From an uncultured Lachnoclostridium sp. (GTDB lineage Bacteria > Bacillota > Clostridia > Lachnospirales > Lachnospiraceae), in contig CAMWXG010000002.1 in NCBI GenBank assembly GCA_947178155.1, positions 1 to 56,082 of the forward strand: a stretch of 56,082 nt of DNA, written 5' to 3'. Made by a program: the position numbers and the translations under genes. Shown piece after piece: positions 5,952 through 21,581 of this stretch (its first letter is position 1; each line of letters starts with the position of its first letter). The notes under the pieces are model-generated. The model made no database searches and was not told the DNA's origin. It was given only the letters and a program-made list of their open reading frames with translations.

Positions 5952-6617
5952 TTAATTATAATAATATGTAGCCCATTCCTCAAACTCTATCCCTGCTTCT
6001 TTACAATATTCATAAAAAGGCTTCTTCCTGTTATCCTTCTCAAAACTGTAATAACAGGAATACAGCTTTTGATAATATTCAACCTCTTCTTGTAATTTAC
6101 TGTTAACTTCCTTTTCTGAAATAATCCTTTGACAATTTTCTATGGCATCGTCATAAACCTCTTTCTCAATACAACTGTATTCAGGAAAATGATGTGCTCC
6201 CCAGAAAAAAATATTGGTATAATGTAAAATCATAAACTCCACTGTCTTTTTGTCACATTCCGGACTCGCATATGCCCTTTCAAGCATAGGAAAGTTAGCT
6301 TCGCCACCAAATTCATAACCCCATCTTAATTGTGGCATTTTATCTTCTTCCTCACACTCCTTCTCTAGATAGTCCATAACATACATATGAAGAAAATATG
6401 GCAGGCTTCCATCTAATCTTTCATTAAATAGATTATTGTTACTATCACAAAACTCCTCTAAAAATTTAACAATAATCTCTTTTTGTACTCTTTCTGGCAC
6501 AGTATTTGAAAATTCCTCTACAAATTCTGCAATATGCTTATTTGCCTGTTTCTTTAATCCTTTCTCATATAATTCACAATAACCCGAAAGCCCCTCTAAA
6601 AAAGTATTATAATCCAT
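5952..6617 (-). CDS. Hypothetical acidic protein
   Basis: A 221-residue soluble, Glu-rich, mostly helical protein with many aromatic residues and no recognised family. There is no signal peptide, membrane segment or metal motif, though HHFPEYSC and several Cys are present. The ATG at 6617 is preferred over two start codons just upstream because GGAGG is eight bases before it. It lies 54 bases downstream of the VWA gene at 6672, on the same strand, with no clear terminator between, so it could be the last gene of the long MoxR/VWA unit. Its composition differs from those envelope proteins. An immunity-type role is possible but unsupported. Confidence 0.7.
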   Translation of the reverse strand: MDYNTFLEGLSGYCELYEKGLKKQANKHIAEFVEEFSNTVPERVQKEIIVKFLEEFCDSNNNLFNERLDGSLPYFLHMYVMDYLEKECEEEDKMPQLRWGYEFGGEANFPMLERAYASPECDKKTVEFMILHYTNIFFWGAHHFPEYSCIEKEVYDDAIENCQRIISEKEVNSKLQEEVEYYQKLYSCYYSFEKDNRKKPFYEYCKEAGIEFEEWATYYYN

Positions 6618-6671
6618 TTTCATCACCTCCTCCTGCTTAATTTTTAATATTTTTCCAAAACTAAGAAAGCA

Positions 6672-9497
6672 TTACCTTTCACGCTCTTTTTGCTTCTGCA
6701 GCAAACTTGCAACGTCAAGCATTTCATTCTCAACTTTCTTTGCTCTTTCTGCTCTCTTTTCCTTACCATCCTTCTTTTTTACATCCACCTTTTTAGATTT
6801 GTCATGTTCCTGAGCTTCTATAGACTTATCTTTTGACTTAAGATTTGTTTTTATACTTGCTGTCATATCCAAATTTACAGATGTTTCTTTTTTAACATTT
6901 CTTTTTGTATTAAAATCTCCAAATATGCCTCCAAGTTTTGTAGTAACTTTTTTCCCAATCTGTATATCAAGCCTTCTGTATACTACATCAATTAAAAATA
7001 GTACTACTGTAATTATAAGTAACGGCAGTGTAATATTTCTCTGTGATATTACTTCTTCTGGTACACTGTCAAATATACCATCAAGATTTTCTAAATATGC
7101 TGCTCCAGTTTGGTTTACAAAACTGTCAAGTGCACTTGTGTCTTTTTGTGGTACATATTCCTGTGAATACTGCATAGCAAGTCTTGCATTGTGTAAATCC
7201 TTTATTTCCTCATCTTCTTTTTGTGTAACATTTATTGTATATATACCTGCATCATGAAGTTCCAGACTTCCCTCATACACTCCTGGCGATTTAGGACTTA
7301 ATTTAATTTTTGAGGTATTGCCCTCCCTGTCTGAACAAGTTGCTTCTACCTCGGTTGATGATGAATAGTCTTTTGAGGTATATACAATTTTACCCGAATT
7401 ACCCTCTTGTGATATATTCACTGTACTTCCTTCATCAACAGCTATGTCTGTCAGCCAGTTTACAATACTTTTCCAAAAATTGGGATACTCTGCCCATGAG
7501 GCATAGTTGCCCGTCCACTGATTCGTTATATCTGATGTAAATGCTGCTGTCCTCCCAAGCCCATACTGCCAACACGCAAGCACTGGATCATTGTCCTCAT
7601 CAGAAGTAAGAACTTGCATCGCCTTATCCTTAATTCCTGTTGCAATATACCCAGCCATGGCAGGAAGTCCCTCTGAAACCTCTTCTCCAAGTATATCACC
7701 TGTATTTATTATGTTTGGTGTAAATACTCTATTTACAATGTATTCCTTTTGTGCAAGATATATCTCCTGCGCAAATATTCTCGACAGCTCTGAACCTTCC
7801 TCCGTGTTATAAAATCTGCCACCTCCTGCATCTGCAAGACTGTTTAAAAAATTATCATCTGCATCTGTACCTATAGATACTGTTGATAATGTTACATTAG
7901 ATTTTTCCAGTTTTTCAATAAGTCCTGGATATCCTTCATAGAAACCATCCTGTCCATCGGTTAAAAGAATTATATGCTTAATCTGACAATCTGAATTTTT
8001 TATCTCATTATATGCTGCATTGACAGCAGGAAATATACTTGTTCCACCACCTTCTGTAATTCCATAAATATTTGATTTAATATCTTCTTTGTCTGAGGCT
8101 TTTTGAATCCTGACTTTCCAGCCATAGGTATCATCAAATGCAATTACTCCTACACTATCTGTATCACGCAGATTATCAACAGCAGATGCTGCAGCATCTT
8201 TTGCCATATCAAGTTTGCTTAAACTATTGTCAAAATCACTCATACTGCCTGATTTATCTATAACCATCACCATAGCCATCTCTGGTATCTTTTTATCCTG
8301 TGATATATCCATATTAACAGGAAGTATATCTTCAATCACAGTGTCTTTATAACCACCAAGTGCAAAACTCTTTTTGCCGCCTACTGCTGCAAATCCTCCG
8401 CCATAATCTTTAACATATGATTCGATATTGTCAGTAAAACCTTTTGGAAGGCTGTCTATATCTGTGTTTTCTATAATAATACATTTATAGTCATTCATTG
8501 CATCCAAATCAGATGGTGCTGATTCTGCACCAAAGACATCGTATTTTATATTTGCAGCACTAAGTACTTTTTGAAACTCATCTGTTTCATCTTCCTTCCC
8601 TTCTATTAAAAGAATTTTTTCAGCCCTGCCTGCCTCTGTATATGCTGAATACTCATTATTTATGCTTAATGTATCCCTTTCAGGTATTATTACTGCCTTA
8701 TATTCCGCAAATCCTGTCTTTTTCCTTGTATCTTTAAATATAAAAGAATTAGTACCATTTTTTAATGTTACATTCTCCTGTTTGCTAAGTTTCTTTCCAG
8801 CATATAATTGAAGTGTTGCATTTGTTTTTATATTACTCTCAACAGTAACATATACCTTAAAAGTGTCGCCTGCCTGTATTTTTTCTGGTACTGTCACATC
8901 AGATACATATACCTCTTCTCCCACACTATTTTCCATTTTGAGCACATTTACTTCAACATGACCTGTTGTAAGAACCCTGCTCATACTTTCAATATCTCCC
9001 TCATTCTGACATCCATCAGTTATAAGCACAATACGCTTTGCAGCATTAGCATTAAAAAGAGCAAGACCTTCCTTCAATGCTTTTTCCATATTGGTAGCAG
9101 AACTTAAGGGCATTGTATCTACTCCTGTAAACAGATTCACATCTGACATAAATTGCTCTATCTTAGTATCTGCACCAAATGCTATAACACCTGCCCTATT
9201 ATGCTTTGGTAAACCACTAAGAGTACTTTTAACCAGATTTATTGCTTCTTCTCTGTTATCCATAAAGCTATCTGAAACATCAAGCAAAAATATTGTATCT
9301 GTTTCCGGCGCACTTATACTTACTGATATATCTGCCATTGCACATACAATACTTGCAATAAGCGCAATGCGTATACCTGCAATCATGTTTTTACGCAGTT
9401 TCCTTCCAATCCTTAAATTTCTTGATGTAATAATTACAACAGTTGCAAGAATTGGAATTAATATTAAAAATATGGGATATTGTACTGCTATCTTCAT
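6672..9497 (-). CDS. Membrane-anchored double VWA protein with glutamine-amidotransferase-like middle domain
   Basis: 941 residues. Two N-terminal membrane helices (about 8-25 and 40-58) lead into a first VWA domain. Its metal site DVSDS (73-77) departs from canonical DxSxS at the fourth residue; TDG follows at 160-162. A strand-rich linker comes next, then a class-I glutamine-amidotransferase-like fold without catalytic Cys (about 295-395, YGGGFAAVGG). A second VWA domain has a perfect MIDAS: DKSGS at 414-418, Thr486 and TDG at 513-515. A membrane helix near 850-870 and a long Lys/Glu-rich cytoplasmic tail end the protein. VWA domains bind partners through a metal ion; MoxR ATPases act on such proteins. 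The start ATG 9497 follows GGAG by six bases. It is the last clear member of the MoxR operon. Confidence 0.88.
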   Translation of the reverse strand: MKIAVQYPIFLILIPILATVVIITSRNLRIGRKLRKNMIAGIRIALIASIVCAMADISVSISAPETDTIFLLDVSDSFMDNREEAINLVKSTLSGLPKHNRAGVIAFGADTKIEQFMSDVNLFTGVDTMPLSSATNMEKALKEGLALFNANAAKRIVLITDGCQNEGDIESMSRVLTTGHVEVNVLKMENSVGEEVYVSDVTVPEKIQAGDTFKVYVTVESNIKTNATLQLYAGKKLSKQENVTLKNGTNSFIFKDTRKKTGFAEYKAVIIPERDTLSINNEYSAYTEAGRAEKILLIEGKEDETDEFQKVLSAANIKYDVFGAESAPSDLDAMNDYKCIIIENTDIDSLPKGFTDNIESYVKDYGGGFAAVGGKKSFALGGYKDTVIEDILPVNMDISQDKKIPEMAMVMVIDKSGSMSDFDNSLSKLDMAKDAAASAVDNLRDTDSVGVIAFDDTYGWKVRIQKASDKEDIKSNIYGITEGGGTSIFPAVNAAYNEIKNSDCQIKHIILLTDGQDGFYEGYPGLIEKLEKSNVTLSTVSIGTDADDNFLNSLADAGGGRFYNTEEGSELSRIFAQEIYLAQKEYIVNRVFTPNIINTGDILGEEVSEGLPAMAGYIATGIKDKAMQVLTSDEDNDPVLACWQYGLGRTAAFTSDITNQWTGNYASWAEYPNFWKSIVNWLTDIAVDEGSTVNISQEGNSGKIVYTSKDYSSSTEVEATCSDREGNTSKIKLSPKSPGVYEGSLELHDAGIYTINVTQKEDEEIKDLHNARLAMQYSQEYVPQKDTSALDSFVNQTGAAYLENLDGIFDSVPEEVISQRNITLPLLIITVVLFLIDVVYRRLDIQIGKKVTTKLGGIFGDFNTKRNVKKETSVNLDMTASIKTNLKSKDKSIEAQEHDKSKKVDVKKKDGKEKRAERAKKVENEMLDVASLLQKQKERER

Positions 9498-9556
9498 AAT
9501 AATCTCCGTTCTGCCGCTTCTCAATTGGCGGCACAAACAATACACCAAACACTTAC

Positions 9557-11428
9557 TCACAATTTTTTCCTGTACACTCTCCATTCAACCATTAAAAGTC
9601 CAGTTAAAATCAAAAGAATTGGTATAATATAAGTTCTAGTTGATACTTTGTCATTAATATGTTTACTTACCTGAATATCTTTTTTATCCGCAGTTACAAC
9701 TGCCTTTTCAGATATGTTTGATTCACTTGCGGGAAATTCCACTGAAAAATACATAATGTTTTTACCTTCCTTAACACTATAGAGTCCAGAATAATTTGTA
9801 TTATCATATACAATTGTATCCTGTTCAAAAGCATACTGTTCTTTTTTTTCTGTTGTATCCGTAACAACAGTTTCTTTTGTATTTTCTACTCGATTTACAA
9901 TAACCTGCTCTCCGGCATTGTAAACGTTTCTTTCAAGTATTTCTGTTGTCATGGTCTGCTTAAGCAGGTTAAACATAAAAATAGGAAACTCTGTCTGTAG
10001 AGGAAAATCCGTATTGTGCAGGTCAAAGCCTATAACCGCTATCTTTCTTCCTCCATAATAACCACAATATCCTGTTGTATTTTTTGAAGAGGTTTCAAAA
10101 AAACTGTATGCCCATGATGGAAGCTCAAATTCCTTTGCCTTAATACAACTAAATGAATAATCTTCTATATATTCTGTCACCTTACTGCTCTTTGTCTTTA
10201 CTAATACATTATTTTTATTATCTTTATATAAAAATATATCCTTCTGCCAACCTTTAGTATTTTTAGATAATTTGGGATTTATAAAAATAATATTGCTTTT
10301 TTGGGGCAGCTGGTCTGGAACTTCTCCATCATAAACCACAAGATCATATCCTTCTTTTGACACATCTAAATCATCAGCGTCCTCTGCCTTAACTTTATCA
10401 AGCACTGTCTGTGTATTTCCAAGTGTAAGTGCATTTTCAAGGAATGAATTTTTTTCTGTTACAAGAAGTATCTTCTGATCATTTGTACCTGCCAAAATGT
10501 CATATGCACTATTGTCCGCCATAAGCATATCATCTGAATTTATCTCTGCCATAAGGTAAGGCTTGTCGCTATTAAGCAAACCTCTATATCTGCCCGCTGG
10601 TATATCTTTAAAATAAACTACTGCATCCTTTCCAGAATCTGCTTCAACTGTCTGTATATCATAAAGCTTATCACCTAGATAGAGATTAACATCTGTGATA
10701 AGCTTACTCTTTCCATAATTTGCAATATATGCAAGCACCTTCACTGTACCATCTTCTCCAATAGAATGACTTACACTATGAAGTGCACCATTTTCTCCAG
10801 CAACACTTAAATCTATAACTTCACAATTTAGTTCCTGCACATTAACACTTTCATCAGTAAATGCAAGAACCTTATAATCTTTCATACCTGATACAAGCGA
10901 CTGAACCATACTTACGCCTGAATCAAACGCTCCCTCCCTGTGAGTTTCAGAAATGTTATTTACTGCATCAATAACCTGCTTTTTATCTGTTTCTCCTGAT
11001 ATCTCAAGACCTGCATATCCATTTGAGGATACAACACTAAATCTTGCGTCTATGCCTGAATTAATATAATCTGATGCCTGCTTTTTTGCTTCATCAAGCT
11101 TAGTAACTCCTTCTGAATAAATACCACTCATGCTACCGCTGTTATCAATCATAATTATAATGTCACCATACCCGCTGTCCCTGCCTGTCAAATATGGCGA
11201 CATAAGAGCAATTATTATTATAATAAGCGCTGCTATCTGCATATACATAAGAAGATTATTCCTAAATTTCTCCCAAGGTGTATTTGCCTGTATATTCTCA
11301 TATGCTTCTTTCCATAAATTAAGTGAAGATATCTTCTGCTCTCTCACTTTCTGTTTAAGGAGATATAGAAGAACTATCCCCGGTATAAAAACAGCCAATG
11401 CGATTGGCCACCATCTGGTTATCCCCAT
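9557..11428 (-). CDS. BatA-type membrane protein with VWA domain
   Basis: 623 residues. The N-terminus matches aerotolerance-regulator BatA layout: a helix (about 5-24), the linker SSLNLWKEAYENIQ, a second helix (60-78), then a VWA domain with canonical DNSGS (95-99). A long extracytoplasmic middle part and a C-terminal helix (about 600-617, IIPILLILTGLLMVEWRVY) with a short basic tail follow, so most of the protein should face outside. In Bacteroides and Leptospira, Bat proteins work with a MoxR ATPase in stress tolerance; the role in Clostridia is not settled. It starts three bases after the DUF58 stop, with a GGAG site, and is 59 bases ahead of the double-VWA gene. Confidence 0.88.
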   Translation of the reverse strand: MGITRWWPIALAVFIPGIVLLYLLKQKVREQKISSLNLWKEAYENIQANTPWEKFRNNLLMYMQIAALIIIIIALMSPYLTGRDSGYGDIIIMIDNSGSMSGIYSEGVTKLDEAKKQASDYINSGIDARFSVVSSNGYAGLEISGETDKKQVIDAVNNISETHREGAFDSGVSMVQSLVSGMKDYKVLAFTDESVNVQELNCEVIDLSVAGENGALHSVSHSIGEDGTVKVLAYIANYGKSKLITDVNLYLGDKLYDIQTVEADSGKDAVVYFKDIPAGRYRGLLNSDKPYLMAEINSDDMLMADNSAYDILAGTNDQKILLVTEKNSFLENALTLGNTQTVLDKVKAEDADDLDVSKEGYDLVVYDGEVPDQLPQKSNIIFINPKLSKNTKGWQKDIFLYKDNKNNVLVKTKSSKVTEYIEDYSFSCIKAKEFELPSWAYSFFETSSKNTTGYCGYYGGRKIAVIGFDLHNTDFPLQTEFPIFMFNLLKQTMTTEILERNVYNAGEQVIVNRVENTKETVVTDTTEKKEQYAFEQDTIVYDNTNYSGLYSVKEGKNIMYFSVEFPASESNISEKAVVTADKKDIQVSKHINDKVSTRTYIIPILLILTGLLMVEWRVYRKKL

Positions 11429-11431
11429 ATT

Positions 11432-12328
11432 TTAACTCTCCAACAATCCTTTTTTGATTCCGCTGTATATAAACTGTTCTATTGTTTCGTCACTGCACAT
11501 TCGTATATAATGTGCCTGATATTTTTTCGCTGCCTGCTCAATCTTTATACAAAATCTATCAAGCACTTCCTTATACTGCCTGCATAAACGGCTTGTTGCA
11601 GTAATACGCAGCATCTCTTCTGTTTCTGAATCAATAAGTCCCATAGTTCCTTCAAGCTCTGGCGAAATTTCCTGTGGTGAAAGCACATGAAGCAAAATTA
11701 CCTCTTGTTTCATGTAACGAAGATAACGTATAGCTTCCAAAATATTTTCCACATTCTTATCTGTAGTGTCTTTACTGAAAAAATCTGATACCAGTACAGT
11801 TACACCCTTGTTATGAAATGGTATTCGCCTAATGCTGCAATTTAAATCAGTATTTGCTCCGAATTCAACATTTTCAAGCCATGACAGCGCCTTTTTAAAG
11901 CCCTGTCTTCCTGTATAGTCACTGCTTATTTTTACTTTATCCCCATATAATGATAAAAGCCTTACTCTGTCAAGATTGTCAAGCGCCATATAAGTTAAAG
12001 CTCCTGCAAGCCTTGCTGCCAAAATACTTTTCTTAGGAATGCCATATTTCATAGAAGTACTTGCATCCGTAAGTATAGAATAATAAGTTTCTCTTTCTTC
12101 TATAAAAAGTTTAACAAATAACTTATCTGTGCGTCCATAGGTATTCCAGTCAATCCTTCTTATGTCATCACCTGCTACATATTCTCTGAAATCAGCAAAT
12201 TCCACGCTGCTGCCCTTTGCTTTTGACCTTCTCATACCACTTCTTCCACCCTGCATTGCAGCTCTGCTTACATGTTTTACGCGGTTAAGCCCCTTAAAAA
12301 AAGCTTCATCAAAAATTCTTTCTTCCAT
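11432..12328 (-). CDS. DUF58 domain protein (MoxR partner)
   Basis: 298 residues, soluble. The DUF58 signature is clear: EFADFREYVAGDDIRRIDWN (43-62) followed by KLFVKLFIEERE. A VWA-like fold comes next with DASTSM (88-93) and VLVSDFFS further on, so a metal-dependent adhesion-type site may be partly kept. DUF58 proteins are nearly always encoded with MoxR ATPases and VWA proteins and are thought to be substrates or adaptors. The gene lies 14 bases after moxR and three before the BatA-type gene, an obvious translationally tight block. No membrane helix is present, unlike many longer DUF58 proteins. Confidence 0.9.
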   Translation of the reverse strand: MEERIFDEAFFKGLNRVKHVSRAAMQGGRSGMRRSKAKGSSVEFADFREYVAGDDIRRIDWNTYGRTDKLFVKLFIEERETYYSILTDASTSMKYGIPKKSILAARLAGALTYMALDNLDRVRLLSLYGDKVKISSDYTGRQGFKKALSWLENVEFGANTDLNCSIRRIPFHNKGVTVLVSDFFSKDTTDKNVENILEAIRYLRYMKQEVILLHVLSPQEISPELEGTMGLIDSETEEMLRITATSRLCRQYKEVLDRFCIKIEQAAKKYQAHYIRMCSDETIEQFIYSGIKKGLLES

Positions 12329-12342
12329 ATTAAATATGTCCT

Positions 12343-13317
12343 TTATTTGGTAACTTCCTTTGCCATAGCAATAAGTATGTCATCAACATCTACACCATCT
12401 GATACGGCTTCAAATCCTGCCATAACTCTATGTCTTAACGCAGGAAGAAATACTGCATCCACATCTTCAAATGAAACATTGTACCTGCCATCAAGAAATG
12501 CTCTTGCTTTTGATGTCAAAAAGATTGCCTGAGCTGCTCGTGGACTTGCACCTGCACTTAGATATTTCTTTACTGACTCAGATGCCCCCTCAAGCTCCGG
12601 ATGTGTAGCAAGCACTATTTTAAGTGCATACTCCTGAACAGGTCCTGCTATAGGTATATCACGTATCGCCTTTCGCATCTTTATAATATCATCACCTTTT
12701 AACACTGCATTTAGTTTTGGAGTTGTATTAGTAACAGTTACCTCCATAATCTCTTTCAATTCATCAAGTGTTGGAAAATCCATATTTATTTTAAATATAA
12801 AACGGTCAAGCTGTGCCTCTGGAAGTGGATATGTTCCTTCGTTTTCAATAGGATTTTGCGTGGCAAGCACCATGTACGGTGTCGGAAGTGAATACGTACT
12901 TTTACCAACAGTTACCGTTTTTTCCTGCATAGCCTCAAGCATTGCAGCCTGTGTCTTAGGAGTTGCCCTGTTAATCTCATCAGCGAGCACAATATTGGCA
13001 AAAACAGGCCCCTGTTCAAATTTAAAAGTATTTTTATCATTCTCTTTTATAATAAGATTAGTACCTGTAACATCAGCCGGCATAAGATCGGGCGTAAACT
13101 GGATTCTCGAAAAACTTAAATCAAGTACTTTTGAAATAGTCTTAACAAGCTGTGTCTTTCCAAGCCCTGGAACACCTTCTAAAAGCACATTGCCATCTGC
13201 AAGGATTGCAAGCATAATCTCATGTATAACATTTTTCTGACCTATAATAGCCTTTCCAATCTCTTCCTCACATGCCGCCATATATGTTGTCATTTTATTC
13301 ACATCTTCTCTTTCCAT
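12343..13317 (-). CDS. MoxR-family AAA+ ATPase
   Basis: 324 residues, AAA_3 family. Motifs are the Walker A GVPGLGKT (48-55), Walker B IVLADE (109-114) followed by INRATPKTQAAMLEAMQE, sensor 1 LATQNPIE (151-158), the arginine-finger region DRF (171-173) and sensor 2 SAGASPRA in the lid domain. These are all intact, so it should form an active hexamer. MoxR ATPases are chaperone-like and help assemble or load metal into complexes that contain VWA proteins. The gene sits between the coiled-coil protein (19 bases upstream) and DUF58 (14 bases downstream). The start ATG has GGGGAG at a slightly long spacing. Confidence 0.94.
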   Translation of the reverse strand: MEREDVNKMTTYMAACEEEIGKAIIGQKNVIHEIMLAILADGNVLLEGVPGLGKTQLVKTISKVLDLSFSRIQFTPDLMPADVTGTNLIIKENDKNTFKFEQGPVFANIVLADEINRATPKTQAAMLEAMQEKTVTVGKSTYSLPTPYMVLATQNPIENEGTYPLPEAQLDRFIFKINMDFPTLDELKEIMEVTVTNTTPKLNAVLKGDDIIKMRKAIRDIPIAGPVQEYALKIVLATHPELEGASESVKKYLSAGASPRAAQAIFLTSKARAFLDGRYNVSFEDVDAVFLPALRHRVMAGFEAVSDGVDVDDILIAMAKEVTK

Positions 13318-13336
13318 ATATTAAATCTCCCCTTAA

Positions 13337-15001
13337 TCACTTACTAAGTCCACTAAAATAATTTTTTACAACATCTTTCATAGCAGCAGGAACCTGACCT
13401 GAATTTGCCTTTGCATAAGCCTGACTGCTGTAATCACCTACAACCGAATCTAGATCTGCCTTTGAGCCTGCCGCCGCATTTCCTGACTGATTGCCCTTTT
13501 CAGTAATTTTAGCATCACCTGACTTTCTGCCAGTAAGGTTATCATCCTCTCCTGTTGCCATGCCTGTAACAAACACACTTTCTCCTTTGCCTCCTGTCGG
13601 TTCGCGCTCAAGTCCTGTTTCACTGCCCATATTCCAGCCACTACCCATTCCTCCGGCTCCACTGCCACTGCCATTTCCACTACCATTTCCGGTTCCAGTT
13701 CCAGTTCCTCCCTGACCATTTCCACCTGAGCCAGAACCCTCTCCACCTGAACCTGAACCAGCATTTTGTCCTGCTGACTGACTACCATTTGATGATGTTC
13801 CATCTGCCTGCTGTGTATTTCCTGAACTGCCTGACGATTGTGATGCCTCTCCTGAACTTCCGCCTGATGTCTGCATGTCTGTTATTGATGCTGATGCCAT
13901 CTGTGCATCAACACTGCCTGTAGATTCAAGCGCTTCTTTTAATTCATCATCAGATATTTCACCATCTTCCATACTTTTCTCAAGATTTTCAAGCAGCTTT
14001 TCCATCTGTTCTTTTGTAAGCATCTCCCCAAGGCCTTTTAACTCACTCAATGCGCTTTCACTAAGCCCACTGCTTTCTGAAATTTCAGAAAGCTTTTCTT
14101 GATACTCTGCAAGTTGTGTCAAATCAATCTCAGGCACAAGAGGCTGCATTGCATCAATAAGCTTCTTGCCGCTATCACTGGTACTCTTGTTATCCTTTCC
14201 CGCCGCATTTGCAAGCTCTTCTTTAAGCTTCTTGGCAAGCCTTTCCTCTGCCTTTTTTATATCATGAGAATCCTTAGCTTCACTAAGTTCTTTTTTGGCC
14301 TGTTTAAGAATCTCCTTAATGTTTTCTGCCTCTGCCTTTGTCTCCTCATCTTTCATAGCTTTGTTTAATGCTTTTTTTGCCTCTTCTACCTTATCTTTCA
14401 CTTCATCTGCCTGCATTGCCAAATCATGGAGCTTCTTAGCATCAAGCTTTGACTGCGCCGGAAGAAATATGCAAACTGCCATCATAGAAAAAAGCAGACA
14501 TACTGATATATATCTTTTCCATGGGTATTTTATAGGAAGTCTTAATTTTTTATCAAACCTCTCTATTTCAGATAATGCATCTTCTTTAAGAAGCTTAGAA
14601 AAACCACTACTTGTTCCTGCAAGTTCAAGACTTGTAACAAGCTTTTCCTTAAGCCCTGCTGCATCTGCGTACATTGCAGCATCATACAAAGACGGATATC
14701 TTATAAGGCTGTATATTAAAGATATTATAAAACTTGCCGCAATTATATAAAATCCATATATATCAGCATTGTATACAGGCACAAACAGTGATAAAAAATT
14801 TATTATGAATGCAAGAAATGCGCCCATACATATACACCATGACATACTATTTAAATAATTCTGAAAAAACTTGCGTCTTGCTACAATACCCAAAAATTTT
14901 ATTATGTCCTTATCATAAGTAGTAAGCTCATTATTATTTTTATAATTTTTTCTGCTGTATGCAGTTTTTTTCCCATTATTAGAAGCCACTATCCTCTTCA
15001 T
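13337..15001 (-). CDS. Membrane protein with coiled coil and Gly/Ser-rich low-complexity region
   Basis: About 554 residues, no recognised family. Three hydrophobic segments (roughly residues 50-75, 80-98 and 162-182) anchor the N-terminus. Then comes a long Lys/Glu/Ala coiled coil (about 190-275), acidic helices, and about 110 residues almost free of hydrophobics, dominated by Gly, Ser, Thr and Gln (about 370-480). The C-terminus regains order and ends VKNYFSGLSK. The layout suggests a membrane scaffold with a flexible, probably extracellular tail. The start is the ATG at 15001, inside the end of the permease gene (23-base overlap), preceded by GGGGTG; two earlier in-frame starts are possible. 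It lies directly before moxR, so it is likely a working part of the MoxR machine. Confidence 0.8.
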   Translation of the reverse strand: MKRIVASNNGKKTAYSRKNYKNNNELTTYDKDIIKFLGIVARRKFFQNYLNSMSWCICMGAFLAFIINFLSLFVPVYNADIYGFYIIAASFIISLIYSLIRYPSLYDAAMYADAAGLKEKLVTSLELAGTSSGFSKLLKEDALSEIERFDKKLRLPIKYPWKRYISVCLLFSMMAVCIFLPAQSKLDAKKLHDLAMQADEVKDKVEEAKKALNKAMKDEETKAEAENIKEILKQAKKELSEAKDSHDIKKAEERLAKKLKEELANAAGKDNKSTSDSGKKLIDAMQPLVPEIDLTQLAEYQEKLSEISESSGLSESALSELKGLGEMLTKEQMEKLLENLEKSMEDGEISDDELKEALESTGSVDAQMASASITDMQTSGGSSGEASQSSGSSGNTQQADGTSSNGSQSAGQNAGSGSGGEGSGSGGNGQGGTGTGTGNGSGNGSGSGAGGMGSGWNMGSETGLEREPTGGKGESVFVTGMATGEDDNLTGRKSGDAKITEKGNQSGNAAAGSKADLDSVVGDYSSQAYAKANSGQVPAAMKDVVKNYFSGLSK

Positions 15002-15977
15002 CGGCATCACCCCGCTTTTTCTTCCTTCTTGCCTTTTTGCCTTCCTTACGCTCCTTTTCCTTTTTCTTTCTTAAAGGATTTAAAAATCGTGCTGACAGTT
15101 TTAAAAGTAATACTGTAAGTAGCAACTGACATACAAGGCTTATTATAAGCCAATGATTCATAACAAATGAATTCATGCGGTTTGCTAAACCGCCACCAAC
15201 TGCTCCGGTTAATGGTGTATTCAATCCTCTGAAAAGCTCAAATGCAAGTGATTCTGCTCCATACTGCTCAACCGACATATTAATTACAGTAAATGCAGGG
15301 TTTATTAATAAAACATATCCTGCCCAGGAAACATCCGGCACATTTCCTCTTCCGCCCATGACATTATAGTAATACATATTTGCAAAAGCGTTAGCCAATA
15401 ATACAAATACTGCTGTCACAATGCAGATTATAACAACCATACCAAAGGAAAATACTATTGCCTGCAGTGTCTTTTTAAGAAATGAAGAAGCAAACATTCC
15501 TATACTTCCCACATATAATGACATTACAAATACAGTAACAACAAACTGCAGTAAATCTGTCATTCCTACACCACCTATTGTAAATACAATAGAAACTATA
15601 GGAAGACTTGACAAAACCAACAGTAAGACCATACTTATTGAAGACATAAGTTTTCCCGCTACTATCTGCTGGGGTTTAAGGATAGTAGTAAGAAGTATTT
15701 CAAGCGTCTGCTTCTCCCTCTCACCTGCTATACTTCCTGCCGTAAATACAGGTATTAAAAATATAACCATAATAGCTTCAAAACATGTAATTATAAAATA
15801 TACCCTTGCTGCTCCAGAGTAATCTATCTGTGCATTCCATTGTATATTAAAAAATACTTCAAACCCAAAAAGTGCAATTCCTATTAATATAAGATTATAA
15901 AAAAATATAGTCAAAGCAAACTTAACAGTACGCACTCTAAGCTTTACCTCTTTGCCATATACAGGATTTAATTTCAT
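14979..15977 (-). CDS. ABC-2 type transporter permease
   Basis: 332 residues with about six membrane helices. Between helices 2 and 3 it carries AGSIAGEREKQTLEILLTT, the conserved coupling segment of ABC-2 permeases in the NatB/gliding-type family. A strongly basic C-terminal tail (KKKEKERKEGKKARRKKKR) ends in an acidic stretch and is unusual. The start codon shares one base with the stop of the ATPase gene upstream (TAATG), with AAAGGAGG as ribosome site, so the two are made together. The substrate is unknown; its place in the MoxR/VWA operon suggests it exports or inserts part of the same system. Confidence 0.9.
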   Translation of the reverse strand: MKLNPVYGKEVKLRVRTVKFALTIFFYNLILIGIALFGFEVFFNIQWNAQIDYSGAARVYFIITCFEAIMVIFLIPVFTAGSIAGEREKQTLEILLTTILKPQQIVAGKLMSSISMVLLLVLSSLPIVSIVFTIGGVGMTDLLQFVVTVFVMSLYVGSIGMFASSFLKKTLQAIVFSFGMVVIICIVTAVFVLLANAFANMYYYNVMGGRGNVPDVSWAGYVLLINPAFTVINMSVEQYGAESLAFELFRGLNTPLTGAVGGGLANRMNSFVMNHWLIISLVCQLLLTVLLLKLSARFLNPLRKKKEKERKEGKKARRKKKRGDADEEDSGF

Positions 15978-16906
15978 TAATCAAGCACCTCCTTTTTAGC
16001 TGTAACCATCATAAATACTTCTTCAAGATTTCCAGTCTCCCTCATAAATGAAGCTACCCTTACTCCATTTTCTACAAGCTTAACAAGAAGTGCTGCTTCG
16101 TCATTTTCATCACCTGAAAAGCTTACAGTAAGATCCTTTCCCTCTATTGAAAGATTGTTGACAAGTGGATCTTCCTTAATATATTTTACTGCTGTTTCAA
16201 CACCATCTACTACACGTATCTTCAAAGGATTTGATGTATTAAGTTGATTCAATATATCTTCTACCAAACCTTTTGTCACCATTTTACCTTTGTCTATAAT
16301 TCCTATAGTAGTACACATCTCAGCAAGCTCCGATAAAATATGAGAACTTATAATTATAGTTTTCCCCATATCATGCAGATTTTTCAGTATTCCTTTCATT
16401 TCAAATCTTGCTCTGGGATCAAGTCCAGATGCAGGCTCATCAAGTATAAGAAGCTCAGGGTTATGTATAAGGCTTCTTGCAAGACAAAGCCTCTGTTTCA
16501 TACCCCTTGATAAACCATCTACATACATATTTGCCTTATCACTTAAATTTACAAGATCCATAAGCTCCAGACACATCTTTGTGGCATCTTTGCCTATCAA
16601 CCCATAAATAGATGCATAAAACTCCATATATTCTATTGCCTTGAGATTATCGTATACTCCAAAGAAATCAGGCATATATCCTATTTTCCTCTTAAGGCGG
16701 TTGTCATAAGTTGCATCAACGCCATCCACTACTGCTGCTCCGCCATCTGCCCTTAAAAGCCCTGATATTATACGCATAGTAGTTGTCTTTCCTGCACCAT
16801 TAGGACCTACAAAACCAAATAACTCACCCTTGTCAATAGAAAGGTTTAAGTAGTTCAATGCCACAAACTTTCCATAATGTTTATATAAATTCTTTATCTC
16901 TACCAT
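15977..16906 (-). CDS. ABC transporter ATP-binding protein
   Basis: 309 residues. Walker A GPNGAGKT (34-41), signature LSRGM (132-136) with following KQRLCLARSL, Walker B LLILDEP (152-158) and the H-loop in IIISSHILSE are all intact. A C-terminal regulatory region of about 80 residues follows, as in NatA/CcmA/gliding-type ATPases that work with ABC-2 permeases. It partners the permease encoded directly downstream. GGAGG lies six bases before the ATG, and the gene is 11 bases after the stop of the exported 853-residue protein. Confidence 0.95.
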   Translation of the reverse strand: MVEIKNLYKHYGKFVALNYLNLSIDKGELFGFVGPNGAGKTTTMRIISGLLRADGGAAVVDGVDATYDNRLKRKIGYMPDFFGVYDNLKAIEYMEFYASIYGLIGKDATKMCLELMDLVNLSDKANMYVDGLSRGMKQRLCLARSLIHNPELLILDEPASGLDPRARFEMKGILKNLHDMGKTIIISSHILSELAEMCTTIGIIDKGKMVTKGLVEDILNQLNTSNPLKIRVVDGVETAVKYIKEDPLVNNLSIEGKDLTVSFSGDENDEAALLVKLVENGVRVASFMRETGNLEEVFMMVTAKKEVLD

Positions 16907-16917
16907 TTAAACCTCCA

Positions 16918-19479
16918 TTATCTGCTGCTTTTGCTATAGCTGCCTGCAAGCTTTACCTTAGGCATTGTATATGTTTCAATACTATATAATCCGCTGGAAA
17001 CAATATCATAATACAATGTAAGAGTGCCATCTTTATTGAAATATTTTTTTAAATTTTTAACAGTTTTTTCCTGACCTGAATTTAAAATAACTTCCCTTCT
17101 GCCTGTTTTCTTATTTTCTGCATAAGCTGTTCCAATAAATGCCATATCAGCATATCCGTCACTGCCAATTTTAAATTCACCATTTGCTGTTTCTTTAGAA
17201 TATATAATCTCTTTCAAATCAAAGCCCACTGGAAACATATATGTTATCTCTATTGTATCCCCAAGACGGTCGGAATGTACTATATAACCATTAGTACACA
17301 CTGTATCATCAAAATCATAAACATAATCCTCCAAAGACCCAATTACAGTATAACCATCTGCTATTTCAGGCACATTAATCCTTTTATATACTCCTGTAAC
17401 TCCATATTCCTCATATGAAAACATACTTGTAAATCCTTCCTCATAACCTTCAGGTACAAATCCATAAAACCATGAGGAACTATTGTTTAAATCATCATAA
17501 TAAAATTTTGAAAGCATTGATATTCTTCGTTTTATTGACACATCAGTGTCACTGTTATATATACTGCCTCCTAAAGCATTTCCTGCATAAGACTCAAAAT
17601 CATAAGTATTGCTGCAATTATATACATTACCTTTGTCAATCTTTCCTATATCAAATGCTCTTCCTGCATCTATATCTCCAATAGAATATAATTCTCCATC
17701 ATGATACAGCACACAACCTTCAAGTTTATACGCCATATCATTTTTAATAGTCCCTGCCATCTTTTTATCTGTCTTTGATACCTCAATCTTTACATTTCCT
17801 TCTGATACAGCAGTATTTCTTGCAGTAAATGATGTGCTCTCAAACGCTGCAAGATTATTCATTATAAATTTTGTATAATCTGTACCATAATCTATGCCAT
17901 AGTCAAAAGTTATATCATTTCCATAACTGACAACATTGCCTCCATAATACCAAGCTGCTCCTTCCGGTACAATATCATAACTGCCCTCAACATCTATTTC
18001 GTATGGTTTATTATTAGAACTTGTTATTGTAAATTGAGTGTCAATCTTATGTCCGCTTGTTTCATTATCCAAAAGCTGGATTTCAGACGCATAATTAATA
18101 TATGGCTTCTGAATACGTGTAGTAGTTCCTATTATATATATAACAAGCGAAAATGCCACAGAAGTTACAGGTACTGCAAGCCAGAGCCAATTCCTTAAGT
18201 CCTTTTTCTTTAAAATGATATATAATATGGGACCTGCTATAATTACATAAATAATAAGCAGTACTGCATACAATTTAAGATTTGGAAGTATATCAGTATC
18301 ATTCATTCTAAGTACATCCGTAGAAGAATTATAATATCCCCCTGTGTATTGGTTATAGGAGTCCCTAAGTTCTGTACTTTTATATTCAGTTAAATTTTCT
18401 TTAATAATCTCACTAAATGCCTTACCATACAAACTTGCAATTTCACTTGACAGTGCAAGAGAAAACTCTGCAACAAGTACATTACCATTTCCAATATCTG
18501 TAGAACTTAACAAAACTTCCCTTCTATCTTTTAATACAGATTTTGAATTCCTAATTTTAAGGTTTGTAATGTCAATAGACATTCGTTTTGGTGAAATATT
18601 TTTACCTGACAGTCTTACAAGCTCATCTTCTGTAATTCCAAAATCTGTCCTAACTGTTTTTGTCTCTCCTACAGTTCCATTCAATATATTACCTGAAAAT
18701 GACTTAAGTACTTTGTCTGCATTAGCTCCACTTCCAAGAAGCAGCATACCACCATTTCTAACCCATTCTTTAATTCCATTTATCTGGTCTTTTGAAAGCT
18801 TTCCTGTATCAAAATCATTAATTATAATAATATCAATACTTTCAAGGGCAAAATCAGCATCTACAATATCTTCTGACGTAATTTCAAAAAAAGCTGAATT
18901 AGACACTCTGTATCCTGTACTGTCATAAACCGGCTGCCCATTGTTGCCAAAGGCATCTTTAAGATAATTTAAATCTGAATATCTGTCAGAAAGTACGCCA
19001 ACATGAAGCTGTGCATACATACTGATATTATACTTAAACTCTGTCGTTTTAATTATATTATCCTTATCATCACATACGACTATCCTTGTAACATCAGAAT
19101 CAACATATGGAATAGTAAACATTACTTTTTCTGTTCCACCTGCAGTAACTGCAAAACTTTTCTGCACCATAGTAAAACCAATGTCATCGTTTCGTCCATA
19201 CTCTATCCTGAGTTTACCTGCAAAATCCTTGCCAGTATTTTGTATAATCGCCTTTACCCTCATATTTTTATTGTATTTGCCCTTGCCGCCAAATCCAAAT
19301 TCCACTGTAGCCTTAATATCGCCAGCAAGCACATTGACTGTTCCGTCTTTACTGCTTATAGATGTGTAAGTATATTTATCGTCTTTTGCTTTAGCTGTAT
19401 ATGTATTAAAACATATCGCACATAAAGCTATAAGAATCAACACTTTTAGTTTATATCTTCCATACCTTATATCTCTCAT
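16918..19479 (-). CDS. Large exported membrane-anchored protein of the MoxR/ABC operon
   Basis: 853 residues. An N-terminal hydrophobic segment (about 11-28) is a signal peptide or anchor. A beta domain (40-155) is followed by a Rossmann/GATase-like domain (about 158-345) with IDIIIINDFDTG and VRNGGMLLLGSG, similar in style to the middle domain of the VWA protein at the other end of the operon. Two helices (401-423, 431-451) separate this from a C-terminal half of about 400 residues, rich in Tyr, Asp and Gly, with predicted beta structure. No catalytic residues can be assigned. It begins 23 bases after the histidine kinase, with an AAGGTG site. It may be a receptor or scaffold outside the membrane; function is unknown. 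Confidence 0.8.
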   Translation of the reverse strand: MRDIRYGRYKLKVLILIALCAICFNTYTAKAKDDKYTYTSISSKDGTVNVLAGDIKATVEFGFGGKGKYNKNMRVKAIIQNTGKDFAGKLRIEYGRNDDIGFTMVQKSFAVTAGGTEKVMFTIPYVDSDVTRIVVCDDKDNIIKTTEFKYNISMYAQLHVGVLSDRYSDLNYLKDAFGNNGQPVYDSTGYRVSNSAFFEITSEDIVDADFALESIDIIIINDFDTGKLSKDQINGIKEWVRNGGMLLLGSGANADKVLKSFSGNILNGTVGETKTVRTDFGITEDELVRLSGKNISPKRMSIDITNLKIRNSKSVLKDRREVLLSSTDIGNGNVLVAEFSLALSSEIASLYGKAFSEIIKENLTEYKSTELRDSYNQYTGGYYNSSTDVLRMNDTDILPNLKLYAVLLIIYVIIAGPILYIILKKKDLRNWLWLAVPVTSVAFSLVIYIIGTTTRIQKPYINYASEIQLLDNETSGHKIDTQFTITSSNNKPYEIDVEGSYDIVPEGAAWYYGGNVVSYGNDITFDYGIDYGTDYTKFIMNNLAAFESTSFTARNTAVSEGNVKIEVSKTDKKMAGTIKNDMAYKLEGCVLYHDGELYSIGDIDAGRAFDIGKIDKGNVYNCSNTYDFESYAGNALGGSIYNSDTDVSIKRRISMLSKFYYDDLNNSSSWFYGFVPEGYEEGFTSMFSYEEYGVTGVYKRINVPEIADGYTVIGSLEDYVYDFDDTVCTNGYIVHSDRLGDTIEITYMFPVGFDLKEIIYSKETANGEFKIGSDGYADMAFIGTAYAENKKTGRREVILNSGQEKTVKNLKKYFNKDGTLTLYYDIVSSGLYSIETYTMPKVKLAGSYSKSSR

Positions 19480-19502
19480 TTCACCTTGTCCTCTCTAACC
19501 TT

Positions 19503-20714
19503 TTATTCAATGTTACTATTTGCTTTATCCTCTACAATTGGCAAAGCAACAGTAAAACATGTCCCCTTATCACTACTTGCAACTGTTATCTTTCCATCAT
19601 GTAGAAGTGCTATCTCCTGTGCTATATTAAGTCCCAATCCTGTACCACCTGTCTTAATGCTTCTTGAGCCTTCAACCCTATAAAACTTATCAAAAATATG
19701 CTCAATGCTTTCTTCTGGTATTACCAATCCAAAATTTGTTACACACACTTGAAACTCCTTTTCGTATTTTTTGAGTTCAATGTACACCACCTTTCCATCT
19801 CTGCCATATTTAATAGCATTGCTTATAAGATTAGAAACCATACGGGCTATAAGTTCAGGATCTACATTCATGATAAGGCTGTCTACATTCTGTTTAAGCT
19901 TATAATCAAGCCCGCTTTCACTAAATAACGGATAAAATTCTTCTGTCATCTGCTCAACCAGTTTCACTATATCTATATCGCTGCGGTGCAGGCTAATCTC
20001 ACCACTCATAAGCTTGGTATAATTAAACAGTTCTTCTATAAGTCCCTGCATACGCTTTGCTTTGCGCATTGCTATATGTGCATGATTCTGTCTCTCCTCC
20101 ACTGAATATTTTTCAGTGTCTGTAGCAAGCTGCAAATATCCTATTATAGATGTAAGAGGGGTACGAAGATCATGCGCTACACAAGTAATCATATCCTTGT
20201 TGGCTTGAAGTGCATCCCTCTCTGCAGCCATAAGCCTTTCTATCTCACGTGACATATGATTCACCTGTATTGCAATATCTCCAAGCTCATCATCTCTGTT
20301 GATATCTGCAATCCTAACATCCATCTTTCCATCTGCAATATCTGATATACACCTTGATATATAACTCATATCTTTTGTAATACGCCTTGTAAAGAGAAGA
20401 AAATAGATGACAAACAGTGTAATTCCTATTAGCAGCATAACAAATACTATAATAATAATTGTATTTTTATCCCAATGCTTAATTTTATGATAATCAGGCA
20501 GCATTCCTTCATCCATGTATGCATCATAATTTTTATCCATAACCGGCTTTCTGCCATAACCGCCTTTTGATATTCCATACATTCGTGCAACTACAATAAT
20601 AAATCCTCCTATTACTGCTTCCGTTATAATAGAAAGTATCAAACTTATAATACTGTACACAATGATTTCCATTCTCATACTTTTAAAAATACTATGCTTC
20701 AATTTTGTATCCAA
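19503..20714 (-). CDS. Sensor histidine kinase (VanS/PhoR-like)
   Basis: 403 residues if translation begins at the TTG at 20714; ATG codons at 20678 and 20672 are alternatives without a clear ribosome site. Two membrane helices (about 17-43 and 84-108) flank a short 40-residue outside loop, too small for a ligand-binding fold. A HAMP region follows (about 108-160), then HisKA with phospho-accepting His181 (VAHDLRTPLTSI), an N box LISNAIKYG and G boxes ending GGTGLGL. The start overlaps the response regulator stop by 23 bases, so the pair is co-translated. It sits at the head of the MoxR/VWA operon, 23 bases before the exported protein, and probably controls it. Confidence 0.92.
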   Translation of the reverse strand: MDTKLKHSIFKSMRMEIIVYSIISLILSIITEAVIGGFIIVVARMYGISKGGYGRKPVMDKNYDAYMDEGMLPDYHKIKHWDKNTIIIIVFVMLLIGITLFVIYFLLFTRRITKDMSYISRCISDIADGKMDVRIADINRDDELGDIAIQVNHMSREIERLMAAERDALQANKDMITCVAHDLRTPLTSIIGYLQLATDTEKYSVEERQNHAHIAMRKAKRMQGLIEELFNYTKLMSGEISLHRSDIDIVKLVEQMTEEFYPLFSESGLDYKLKQNVDSLIMNVDPELIARMVSNLISNAIKYGRDGKVVYIELKKYEKEFQVCVTNFGLVIPEESIEHIFDKFYRVEGSRSIKTGGTGLGLNIAQEIALLHDGKITVASSDKGTCFTVALPIVEDKANSNIE

Positions 20715-21387
20715 CTCCCCAGACTGTCTTTATTATTTGTGCATTTCTTGGATCAAGTTCTACTTTTTCACGAAGTCTTCTAATATGAACCATAACTGTG
20801 TTGCTCATCTCAAAGCTCTTTTCTTTCCACACCTTTTCAAATATATCATCAGTTGAAAATACATTGTTTGGATTAGAAGCCATAAGGAACAAAATATCAA
20901 ACTCTATAGGTGTAAGCTTTATATCCTTTCCATATGCTTTAACCTGATGAAGTTTTCTGTCCATCCATAAATTTTCAAGCTCAACTGTATCTGCCGACTT
21001 TGCATTTGCATTTCCAAAATTATGGTAACGCCTAAGCTGTGACTTCACTCTTGCTACAAGTTCCATTGTATTAAATGGTTTAGTTACATAATCATCTGCT
21101 CCATTTATAAGTCCTGATATCTTATCAGTTTCACTGTCCCTTGCACTTAACATAATAATTGGAATCGTACTGCTCTTCCTAATCTCTAAACATACCTTGC
21201 TGCCATCTATCTCCGGCATCATAATATCCAATATCGCAAGGTCTATCTCTTCTTTTTCAAATATATCAATAGCCTTTTTTCCATCATATGCCTTATATAC
21301 ATTGTACCCTTCTCCCTTTAAATGGATTGATACAAGATCTGCTATATCATGGTCATCATCTACTACCAAAATATTTCCTTTCTCCAT
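20692..21387 (-). CDS. OmpR/PhoB-family response regulator
   Basis: 231 residues. The receiver domain (1-120) has the acidic pocket VVDDDHD, phospho-acceptor Asp54 (ILDIMMP), Ser/Thr switch (LSARD) and Lys in TKPF. A winged-helix DNA-binding domain occupies about 130-230 (FDILFLMASNPNNVFS ... VMVHIRRLREKVE ... TVWGVGYKI). It resembles VanR-type regulators. It is the first gene of the minus-strand unit that continues through the MoxR/VWA genes. The ATG has GAGG six bases upstream. Phosphorylation by the kinase encoded next would let it bind an upstream promoter between 21388 and 21560; I found no clear direct-repeat operator there. Confidence 0.95.
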   Translation of the reverse strand: MEKGNILVVDDDHDIADLVSIHLKGEGYNVYKAYDGKKAIDIFEKEEIDLAILDIMMPEIDGSKVCLEIRKSSTIPIIMLSARDSETDKISGLINGADDYVTKPFNTMELVARVKSQLRRYHNFGNANAKSADTVELENLWMDRKLHQVKAYGKDIKLTPIEFDILFLMASNPNNVFSTDDIFEKVWKEKSFEMSNTVMVHIRRLREKVELDPRNAQIIKTVWGVGYKIEA

Positions 21388-21561
21388 CTAAACCTCATAC
21401 CTCTCTTTCAATCCAGCCTTACTATAACTATTATCACTTTTGTTACTATTCACAGAATATCATAATAATTGATAGAATTCTTTACTTTTTTATTAAAACG
21501 TATATCTAAATGCTTACAATTTTATGACATTCCGCCTGTACATATTTTTAAACATCTGAAA

Positions 21562-21581
21562 AGCCCGCCATATGGCGGACT
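21562..21581 (-). terminator. Terminator of the citrate synthase gene
   Basis: AGTCCGCCAT-ATGGCGGGCT is a ten-pair stem (one G-T pair) followed on the minus strand by TTTTC. It lies about 30 bases past the citrate synthase stop and separates it from the two-component operon. Confidence 0.7.

What the first reader, a model, noticed from the sequence alone, without database searches (positions are those of the whole stretch)
6672..21387. Two-component-controlled MoxR/DUF58/VWA machine with built-in ABC transporter
Ten genes on one strand, with gaps of 3-59 bases or overlaps, run: response regulator, kinase, exported 853-residue protein, ABC ATPase, ABC permease, coiled-coil/Gly-rich membrane protein, MoxR ATPase, DUF58, BatA-type VWA, double-VWA/GATase-like protein. 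MoxR with DUF58 and VWA proteins is an established but poorly understood association. The extra modules (dedicated two-component control, ABC-2 pair, Rossmann-like exported protein, flexible scaffold) suggest a single envelope-facing system. Possible roles are assembly of an extracellular complex, sensing of wall stress, or surface-protein maturation; the sequence does not decide.
Basis: partly seen in the sequence, partly recalled or inferred. Interest (0 to 1): 0.75.

Follow-up and report, generated by a model that had tools for sequence, protein, structure and literature searches.

The report
Modular envelope machine with MoxR ATPase
A run of eight genes, kept in nearly the same order across distantly related bacteria, appears to build one machine in the cell envelope from a transporter-like half and a MoxR-ATPase half, and in this gut bacterium's family it has gained its own two-gene sensor switch.

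Summary
In detail: ten minus-strand genes (6672-21387) with tiny gaps or overlaps. Neighbourhood comparison shows a conserved eight-gene cassette, EXP-ABC-PERM-COIL-MoxR-DUF58-BatA-VWA2, in Bacillota, 2 of 8 Chloroflexota loci and single loci of three other phyla. The two-component pair is an addition of this family, but a dedicated one: 39 linked response regulators form one clade, and 33 of 39 promoters carry the same direct repeat. The cassette has two halves. EXP-ABC-PERM (a GldAFG-like ABC complex; EXP has a GIFT/GATase1-like domain) often stands alone, behind this two-component system here or an ECF sigma factor plus a beta-propeller protein elsewhere. In the family and phylum samples the MoxR half is almost never seen without EXP (15 of 15; 48 of 51); outside the phylum it can be. 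Natural fusions (PERM-EXP, BatA-VWA2) support physical partnership. Most likely: an envelope-stress-induced ABC/GIFT platform with MoxR/DUF58 and two membrane VWA proteins as a remodelling add-on. Stress and substrate are unknown; some divergent cassettes lack the ABC ATPase. Closest described relative: the predicted archaeal DUF4350/MoxR/vWA secretion system. A new variant of a known kind; my searches found no description of this cassette.

The parts
21456..21496 (-). Predicted promoter: direct repeat TTAATAAAAAAGTAAAGA (21479-21496) in the -35 position, followed by a TATGATATT-type extended -10 (21456-21464); presumed response-regulator-activated promoter of the operon
   Evidence: box at least 10 of 12 to KTAAG-N6-GTAARGA in 33 of 39 family loci (100 dinucleotide shuffles: mean 3.6, maximum 9), at least 11 in 24 of 39 (mean 0.3, maximum 3); 21 of those 24 have T[AG]TGnTA within 32 bp
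20692..21387 (-). RR: OmpR/PhoB-type response regulator, 231 aa
   Evidence: 39 linked RRs one clade, SH-aLRT 98
19503..20714 (-). HK: membrane sensor kinase, 403 aa, predicted 41-aa extracytoplasmic loop
   Evidence: 71% identical HK beside the cassette in both nearest named relatives
16918..19479 (-). EXP: GIFT/GATase1-like membrane protein, 853 aa; N-terminal beta domain, Rossmann domain about 156-368, TM hairpin 405-450, C-terminal beta-rich domain
   Evidence: (DUF7408 13 of 28, DUF4350 4 of 28 members)
15977..16906 (-). ABC: ABC-2-type ATPase, 309 aa
   Evidence: DrrA 234 bits, GldA 218 bits, both below cut-off
14979..15977 (-). PERM: ABC-2 permease, 332 aa, 6 predicted TM
   Evidence: GldF is the only NCBIfam hit, 40 bits, below cut-off; fused to EXP in relative L159
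13337..15010 (-). COIL: 3-TM protein with Glu/Lys-rich (coil-like, by eye) then Gly-rich segment and a conserved C-terminal motif, 557 aa
12343..13317 (-). MoxR AAA+ ATPase, 324 aa
   Evidence: AAA_3 211.6 bits; 2r44, 265 bits
11432..12328 (-). DUF58 protein, 298 aa, no predicted TM, VWA-like Asp-x-Ser-x-Ser motif
   Evidence: (D88, S90, S92 invariant in 13 of 13 rows)
9557..11428 (-). BATA: BatA-type VWA protein, 623 aa, 3 predicted TM
   Evidence: fused to VWA2 in several relatives
6672..9497 (-). VWA2: VWA - GATase1-like - VWA membrane protein with 101-aa Lys-rich C-terminal tail (longest ORF starts at 9584; likely start Met30 at 9497)

Best explanation
The ten genes encode one inducible cell-envelope machine with two halves. 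Half 1 is a GldAFG-like ABC complex: PERM and ABC form the ABC-2 membrane core, and EXP, bound to PERM, puts a GIFT (GATase1-like) domain and a beta-rich domain outside, probably to bind an envelope glycan or glycolipid. Half 2 is a remodelling add-on: cytosolic MoxR with DUF58 uses ATP to act on the membrane-anchored VWA proteins BatA and VWA2 and on COIL, whose VWA and Gly-rich parts are predicted to lie outside; these in turn act on the ABC/GIFT complex or its substrate. A dedicated sensor kinase and response regulator switch the operon on from a promoter with a direct repeat in the -35 position, presumably on envelope stress. Shown: gene content and order, separability of the halves, co-occurrence of half 2 with EXP in the family and phylum samples, one orthologous response-regulator group, the conserved promoter box, the fusions, the GIFT-type fold of EXP as a model. 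Inferred: membrane sides, complex formation, direction of force, activation by the regulator, the inducing stress, glycan binding.
Against: No transcript, interaction or phenotype data. Outside the phylum the MoxR half does occur without the trio (L214 Verrucomicrobiota, L237 Planctomycetota), and VWA2 occurs without a recognised MoxR half in 7 of 46 named loci. 12 of 34 phylum loci with EXP and MoxR have no ABC ATPase gene nearby, so ATP-driven transport is not part of every form. Glycan binding rests on fold and on a proposal for other GIFT proteins (passages of PMC7226087). The genome-wide search for the promoter box gives 10 sites against 10 for the reversed control, so nothing about other target genes or the signal can be read from it; the box was also derived from the sequences it was counted in. 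TM sides come from a simple hydropathy and charge count. GldG itself is not matched by sequence.
Confidence: 0.5

Rival explanations
1. It is mainly a secretion system: the ABC/GIFT half exports or stabilises a surface protein, as proposed for GldAFG and for the archaeal DUF4350/MoxR/vWA system, and the MoxR half folds or releases the cargo.
For: ABC and PERM have sub-threshold GldA and GldF matches; some EXP members match DUF4350, the archaeal system's marker (4 of 28; section 3.2 of PMC5898192); three large predicted extracellular parts.
Against: I saw no recurrent extra gene that could be a cargo in the gene lists, though unlabelled neighbours were not clustered; no GldG match by sequence. 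The regulators point to inducible rather than constitutive use.
Confidence: 0.2
2. The operon is an antimicrobial-resistance ABC exporter with its own sensor, of the VanRS or Bce kind, and the MoxR genes are passengers.
For: RR and HK score best against VanR and VanS models (300 and 258.7 bits, cut-offs 350 and 400); stand-alone TCS-EXP-ABC-PERM loci are common.
Against: No VanR/VanS cut-off is met; full cassettes outside the family lack such a pair (31 of 32 with room upstream); the MoxR genes keep their place over great distances.
Confidence: 0.15
3. MoxR/DUF58 only mature the BatA and VWA2 metal (MIDAS) sites; the ABC genes are functionally unrelated neighbours.
For: MIDAS residues are conserved in both VWA domains of VWA2; the MoxR-VWA pair is a known chaperone unit (abstract of PMC13036017; listing of PMC9976466); two named loci outside the phylum have the MoxR half without the trio.
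Against: Linkage and co-occurrence with EXP in the family and phylum samples.
Confidence: 0.1
4. Chance neighbours on one strand.
For: Bacillota genes are often co-directional (recalled).
Against: Conserved order in many families and two kinds of gene fusion.
Confidence: 0.01

Closest known systems
Predicted archaeal DUF4350 (arCOG01314) / MoxR / vWA secretion or membrane-remodelling system (PMC5898192: section 3.2, table passage)
   Same: A GldG-like membrane protein with a flavodoxin-type extracellular domain, a MoxR/GvpN-type AAA+ ATPase and secreted vWA proteins in one operon; also only predicted
   Different: The section and passages seen name no ABC ATPase or permease, DUF58, COIL or regulators as parts; here EXP has a mid-protein TM hairpin and a second large domain rather than a single C-terminal TM
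GldA-GldF-GldG ABC complex of gliding Bacteroidota
   Same: ABC ATPase, ABC-2 permease and a GIFT-fold auxiliary membrane protein
   Different: Below the GldA and GldF cut-offs, no GldG sequence match; joined to a MoxR half and dedicated regulators; not a Bacteroidota genome
BatA-type MoxR cluster (Bacteroides aerotolerance proteins; Leptospira passages of PMC3557215)
   Same: MoxR with BatA-type VWA proteins
   Different: GATase1-like domain between two VWA domains, ABC/GIFT half, COIL; no other Bat family matched among the ten
NorQ/NorD, RavA/ViaA and other MoxR-VWA pairs
   Same: AAA+ ATPase working with a VWA partner; NorQD gives the mechanistic model (abstract of PMC13036017)
   Different: Here the soluble VWA-like partner would be DUF58 and the true VWA proteins are predicted to be membrane anchored
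MoxR-vWA ternary conflict systems (PMC7159879, passages only)
   Same: MoxR with a vWA protein plus further components
   Different: No VMAP, iSTAND, FtsH or propeller third component among the ten; by word search that paper's main text has no DUF58, BatA, GATase or ABC transporter

Membership tests
MoxR/VWA systems | AAA_3-type MoxR ATPase | tested here: met
   211.6 bits, cut-off 27; 2r44
MoxR/VWA systems | Adjacent VWA protein with MIDAS residues | tested here: met
   D102/S104/S106 and D443/S445/S447, T515, D543 invariant in 20 of 20 rows
MoxR/VWA systems | Physical MoxR-VWA complex | not testable with these tools
   No interaction data
GldAFG ABC complex | ABC ATPase and ABC-2 permease adjacent | tested here: met
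GldAFG ABC complex | NCBIfam GldA, GldF and GldG equivalog scores over cut-off | tested here: not met
   GldA 218 of 402.6, GldF 40.4 of 288.5, no NCBIfam match for EXP
GldAFG ABC complex | GIFT-fold auxiliary subunit | tested here: met
DUF4350/MoxR/vWA predicted secretion system | DUF4350-type protein in an operon with MoxR and vWA protein | tested here: inconclusive
   DUF4350 matched by 4 of 28 EXP members (best 2.4e-5), DUF7408 by 13 of 28; the window's own EXP matches neither at 0.01
Bat aerotolerance cluster | BatA domain | tested here: met
   PF07584, 39.4 bits, cut-off 25.9
Bat aerotolerance cluster | BatD and TPR-type Bat proteins in the cluster | tested here: not met
   none of the ten proteins matches such a family (which families these would be is recalled)
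MoxR-vWA ternary conflict system | Third component (VMAP, iSTAND, FtsH or propeller effector) beside MoxR-vWA | tested here: not met
   Searches (ten proteins; seven of ten): none among the ten, although bpMoxR (PF20030) scores 51.1 bits, over its cut-off of 27, far below AAA_3
VanRS two-component system | NCBIfam VanR and VanS scores over cut-off | tested here: not met
   300 of 350 and 258.7 of 400

The most novel reading that the evidence does not exclude
A widespread, undescribed modular envelope machine: a GIFT-domain ABC complex that works alone as an envelope-stress module, paired with transmembrane signalling by separate lineages (two-component system in Lachnospiraceae, ECF sigma factor with a propeller protein in others), and that in its full form carries a MoxR/DUF58/BatA/VWA2 complex which pulls or twists its extracellular part from the cytosol. 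MoxR would here be a force generator coupled to an ABC complex, a pairing that I did not find described in the searches.
Probability: 0.35. Interest if true: 0.8.

Novelty: new variant of a known kind. Interest (0 to 1): 0.62.

Why it matters
DUF58, BatA and GATase1-like VWA proteins are common and have no agreed job (recalled). This cassette gives them constant partners, an order of dependence in the phylum (the MoxR half comes with EXP, EXP does not need the MoxR half), a dedicated signal input with a predicted promoter, and cultured hosts outside gut anaerobes (Lysinibacillus, Paenibacillus, Brevibacillus, Sporosarcina). That makes the question of what MoxR does at the Gram-positive envelope directly testable by deletions and a promoter reporter.

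Tried and rejected
Considered and dropped: the ten genes as one indivisible unit (the MoxR half is missing from many loci with the same regulators); the two-component pair as part of the core (not found beside full cassettes outside the family); a defence system (PADLOC on seven of the ten proteins gives only weak hits, best DolB at 31 bits for MoxR); a VanRS resistance cluster (cut-offs not met); COIL as a Cas1 relative (15-16-bit matches on its coil-like stretch; not believed).

Led nowhere: Foldseek on the whole EXP model gave long low-TM alignments to glycosidases and transglutaminases, used only through the domain-level second look; the C-terminal half of EXP was not matched separately. 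Pfam on COIL members gave scattered weak hits. The first promoter motif run found the coding start of the regulator and was redone upstream. The genome-wide box search gave 10 sites, its control 10. Paper searches listed no paper whose title or abstract start describes this cassette; of the papers I saw passages of five (PMC7159879, PMC12067865, PMC5682007, PMC3557215, PMC7226087), one section plus passages of PMC5898192 and the abstract of PMC13036017.

Biases: the outside-family loci were picked by VWA2, so they hold the full cassette by construction; the tree was therefore rebuilt with stand-alone loci (78 rows, with 24 of 52 family loci; phylum and named full-cassette loci only if EXP, ABC and PERM were all labelled, which leaves out the ABC-less forms). 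The ORF caller is simple and mislabels antisense ORFs in GC-rich genomes. 'Order consistent' is counted on labelled genes only: 1 of 33 phylum and 7 of 46 named loci have at most one such gene upstream, and L159, where PERM has moved in front of EXP and fused to it, passes because the fused ORF is labelled EXP. Many genomes are fragmented MAGs. Trees are quick ones with SH-aLRT only. 13 of 17 own-genome RR paralogues could be read. The A/B and TCS labels rest on distance rules. The box count compared 360 bases with shuffles of 300; one search repeats it with equal lengths and dinucleotide shuffles (33 of 39 in place of 34 of 40).
Full report
Observation. The ten genes are present as described, all on the minus strand, with intergenic distances from a 32-bp overlap to a 59-bp gap (the VWA2 start at Met30 follows). 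Two proteins have no Pfam family at cut-off: the 853-residue protein (EXP) and the coil-like/Gly-rich protein (COIL). No terminator-like site lies between the genes on that strand, but these scans are at chance level. The named genomes closest to the window by VWA2 are Lachnospiraceae and Lachnoclostridium MAGs at 62% identity, so the window very probably comes from that family.

Neighbourhood in the family. EXP was found in 51 of 150 genomes of the family. I fetched up to 20 kb around 52 places and labelled ORFs with profiles started from the ten window proteins. Two kinds of locus appear. In one, RR-HK-EXP-ABC-PERM stands alone; in the other COIL-MoxR-DUF58-BatA-VWA2 follows in the same order as in the window. 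By the rules the 52 family loci are 31 stand-alone, 14 full and 7 cut by a contig end. Two-component genes are beside 30 of 31 stand-alone loci, 6 of 7 cut ones and 5 of 14 full ones (8 without, 1 undetermined), to which the window adds one with. In four full loci (L068, L075, L077, L085) BatA and VWA2 are one ORF of 1491-1582 residues.

Dependence. A VWA2 profile run on the family sample gave 17 of 150 genomes, 15 of them strong (E below 1e-50) and two weak single-domain matches. All 15 strong ones are among the 51 with EXP. One genome (G120) has EXP to COIL at a contig end and no VWA2 match. In this sample the MoxR half was not seen without EXP, while EXP-ABC-PERM is common without the MoxR half.

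Beyond the family. In 398 genomes of the phylum VWA2 passes 1e-20 in 58, of which I count 51 as real relatives (E below 1e-40; the other 7 are single-domain matches), and EXP passes 1e-8 in 60; 42 genomes have both. Of the nine with VWA2 only, six have a gene labelled EXP by the iterated profile in the cassette, at 24-89 bits (L152-L157), one has an unlabelled 623-residue gene there (L146), one shows no clear cassette (L150) and one was not fetched. Of 39 phylum loci, 33 hold at least 8.5 kb upstream of VWA2: 22 have all of EXP, ABC and PERM, and the labelled genes are in the same order in 33 of 33, one of them trivially.

Named genomes. The trio is complete in 29 of 31 Bacillota, 2 of 8 Chloroflexota and in the single loci from Calditrichota, Pseudomonadota and Actinomycetota; it is absent from the single loci of Verrucomicrobiota, Planctomycetota and Acidobacteriota and from the other 6 Chloroflexota, and one unclassified locus has two of three. 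The two Bacillota exceptions are L169, which is the locus L060 where six unrelated genes interrupt the cassette beyond the flank held, and L159, where PERM is fused to EXP. The labelled order is consistent in 46 of 46, seven of them trivially, and L159 is a hidden exception. Against a simple picture: L214 and L237 have MoxR, DUF58 and BatA with VWA2 but no trio; seven loci have VWA2 without a recognised MoxR or DUF58 gene; and 12 of 34 phylum loci with EXP and MoxR have no ABC ATPase gene nearby, with a 220-300-residue, mostly polytopic protein in the permease's place.

Stand-alone trio with another regulator. Eighteen phylum genomes had EXP without VWA2. I fetched all 18. Two are full cassettes cut by contig ends (L269, L274). 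Of the other 16, 11 carry directly upstream a 442-513-residue gene and before it a 178-274-residue gene with a shared ADDLT motif; two more show only the former gene, at a contig end; one has a broken EXP, one an unchecked 469-residue ORF, one neither. I tested four of each by Pfam: 4 of 4 are ECF-type sigma factors (regions 2 and 4) and 4 of 4 have PD40 beta-propeller repeats. On a tree of EXP+ABC+PERM these 11 are one clade (SH-aLRT 99) inside a larger clade with full-cassette Bacillales loci, and stand-alone loci need 7 changes of state in all. The MoxR half was thus probably lost several times; the direction depends on the root, which is not fixed.

Dedicated two-component system. The 39 response regulators next to EXP in the family (window included) form one clade (98) apart from 13 OmpR-type paralogues of the window's own genome. 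Among 32 other full cassettes with room upstream, 31 had no such gene and one (L153) had a weak match to a different response regulator. The two nearest named relatives carry a 71% identical kinase directly upstream of the cassette: the fetched kinase stretches share DNA with loci L159 and L171. Upstream of the regulator, 33 of 39 loci have a box at least 10 of 12 to KTAAG-N6-GTAARGA against a mean of 3.6 and a maximum of 9 in 100 dinucleotide shuffles; 24 of 39 reach 11, against a mean of 0.3 and a maximum of 3; and 21 of those 24 have T[AG]TGnTA within 32 bp downstream (alignment; motif search without a preset pattern, log-likelihood 245.9 against 61-65 in four shuffles). The box was derived from these same sequences. 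The window's site is 21479-21496 and scores 11. A direct repeat in place of the -35 with an extended -10 is the usual look of a promoter activated by an OmpR-type regulator (recalled). With 23 bp between HK and EXP the same promoter probably serves the whole operon (inference). In the whole genome a slightly looser pattern is no commoner than its control, 10 against 10.

How it most likely works. The stable core is the ABC/GIFT trio: it can stand alone, it is the part tied to signalling, and in two lineages that signalling differs in kind. I read it as an envelope-stress module. MoxR, DUF58, COIL, BatA and VWA2 are an add-on that in this phylum comes with EXP; MoxR with DUF58 in the cytosol would remodel the membrane VWA proteins and through them the outer part of the ABC/GIFT complex or its substrate. 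Gene order, separability, fusions, clades and promoter box are shown; complex formation, force direction, membrane sides, signal and ligand are inferred.

Comparison and novelty. The nearest published idea that I found is the predicted archaeal DUF4350/MoxR/vWA secretion or membrane-remodelling system (section 3.2 of PMC5898192). GldAFG is the nearest characterised ABC complex in make-up, but its sequence cut-offs are not met. My paper searches over an open-access library listed nothing on this eight-gene cassette; subscription papers are mostly not covered, so 'undescribed' is limited to that library. I file it as a new variant of a known kind.

Noticed in passing
L132, L145, L147-L149, L151-L157: Cassettes with EXP and MoxR but no ABC ATPase gene nearby; a 220-300-residue, mostly polytopic protein takes the permease's place.
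   Followed up: partly
L258-L261, L263-L267, L270, L273 (upstream of EXP): ECF-type sigma factor plus a protein with PD40/LpqB-like propeller repeats (four of each tested) linked to the stand-alone trio; possible sensor pair. L262 has an unchecked 469-residue ORF there.
   Followed up: partly
L199, L204, L215, L218, L228: Chloroflexota loci with VWA2 but without any recognised MoxR, DUF58, BatA or EXP gene upstream.
   Followed up: no
L214, L237: Verrucomicrobiota and Planctomycetota loci with MoxR, DUF58, BatA and VWA2 but no recognised EXP, ABC or PERM gene upstream.
   Followed up: no
   Followed up: no
L173: A record titled Calditrichales groups with Lutispora and Clostridiales in the EXP tree: transfer or mislabelled record.
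   Followed up: no
window 21565-21578: Palindrome CCGCCATATGGCGG between the upstream gene (a citrate synthase by eye, not searched) and RR; on the minus strand a short T run follows, so it may end that gene's transcript.
   Followed up: no
window 5952-6626: 224-residue ORF 45 bp downstream of VWA2 on the same strand, no Pfam hit at 1e-5; whether it goes with the cassette elsewhere was not tested.
   Followed up: no
G000:C18 (L002): A second MoxR gene of the same genome, upstream of it a ClpX-like ORF by eye.
   Followed up: no
window 37838-39736 and 49256-49338: A 632-residue ORF without a Pfam hit at 1e-5, and a 36-bp tandem repeat inside an ORF.
   Followed up: no
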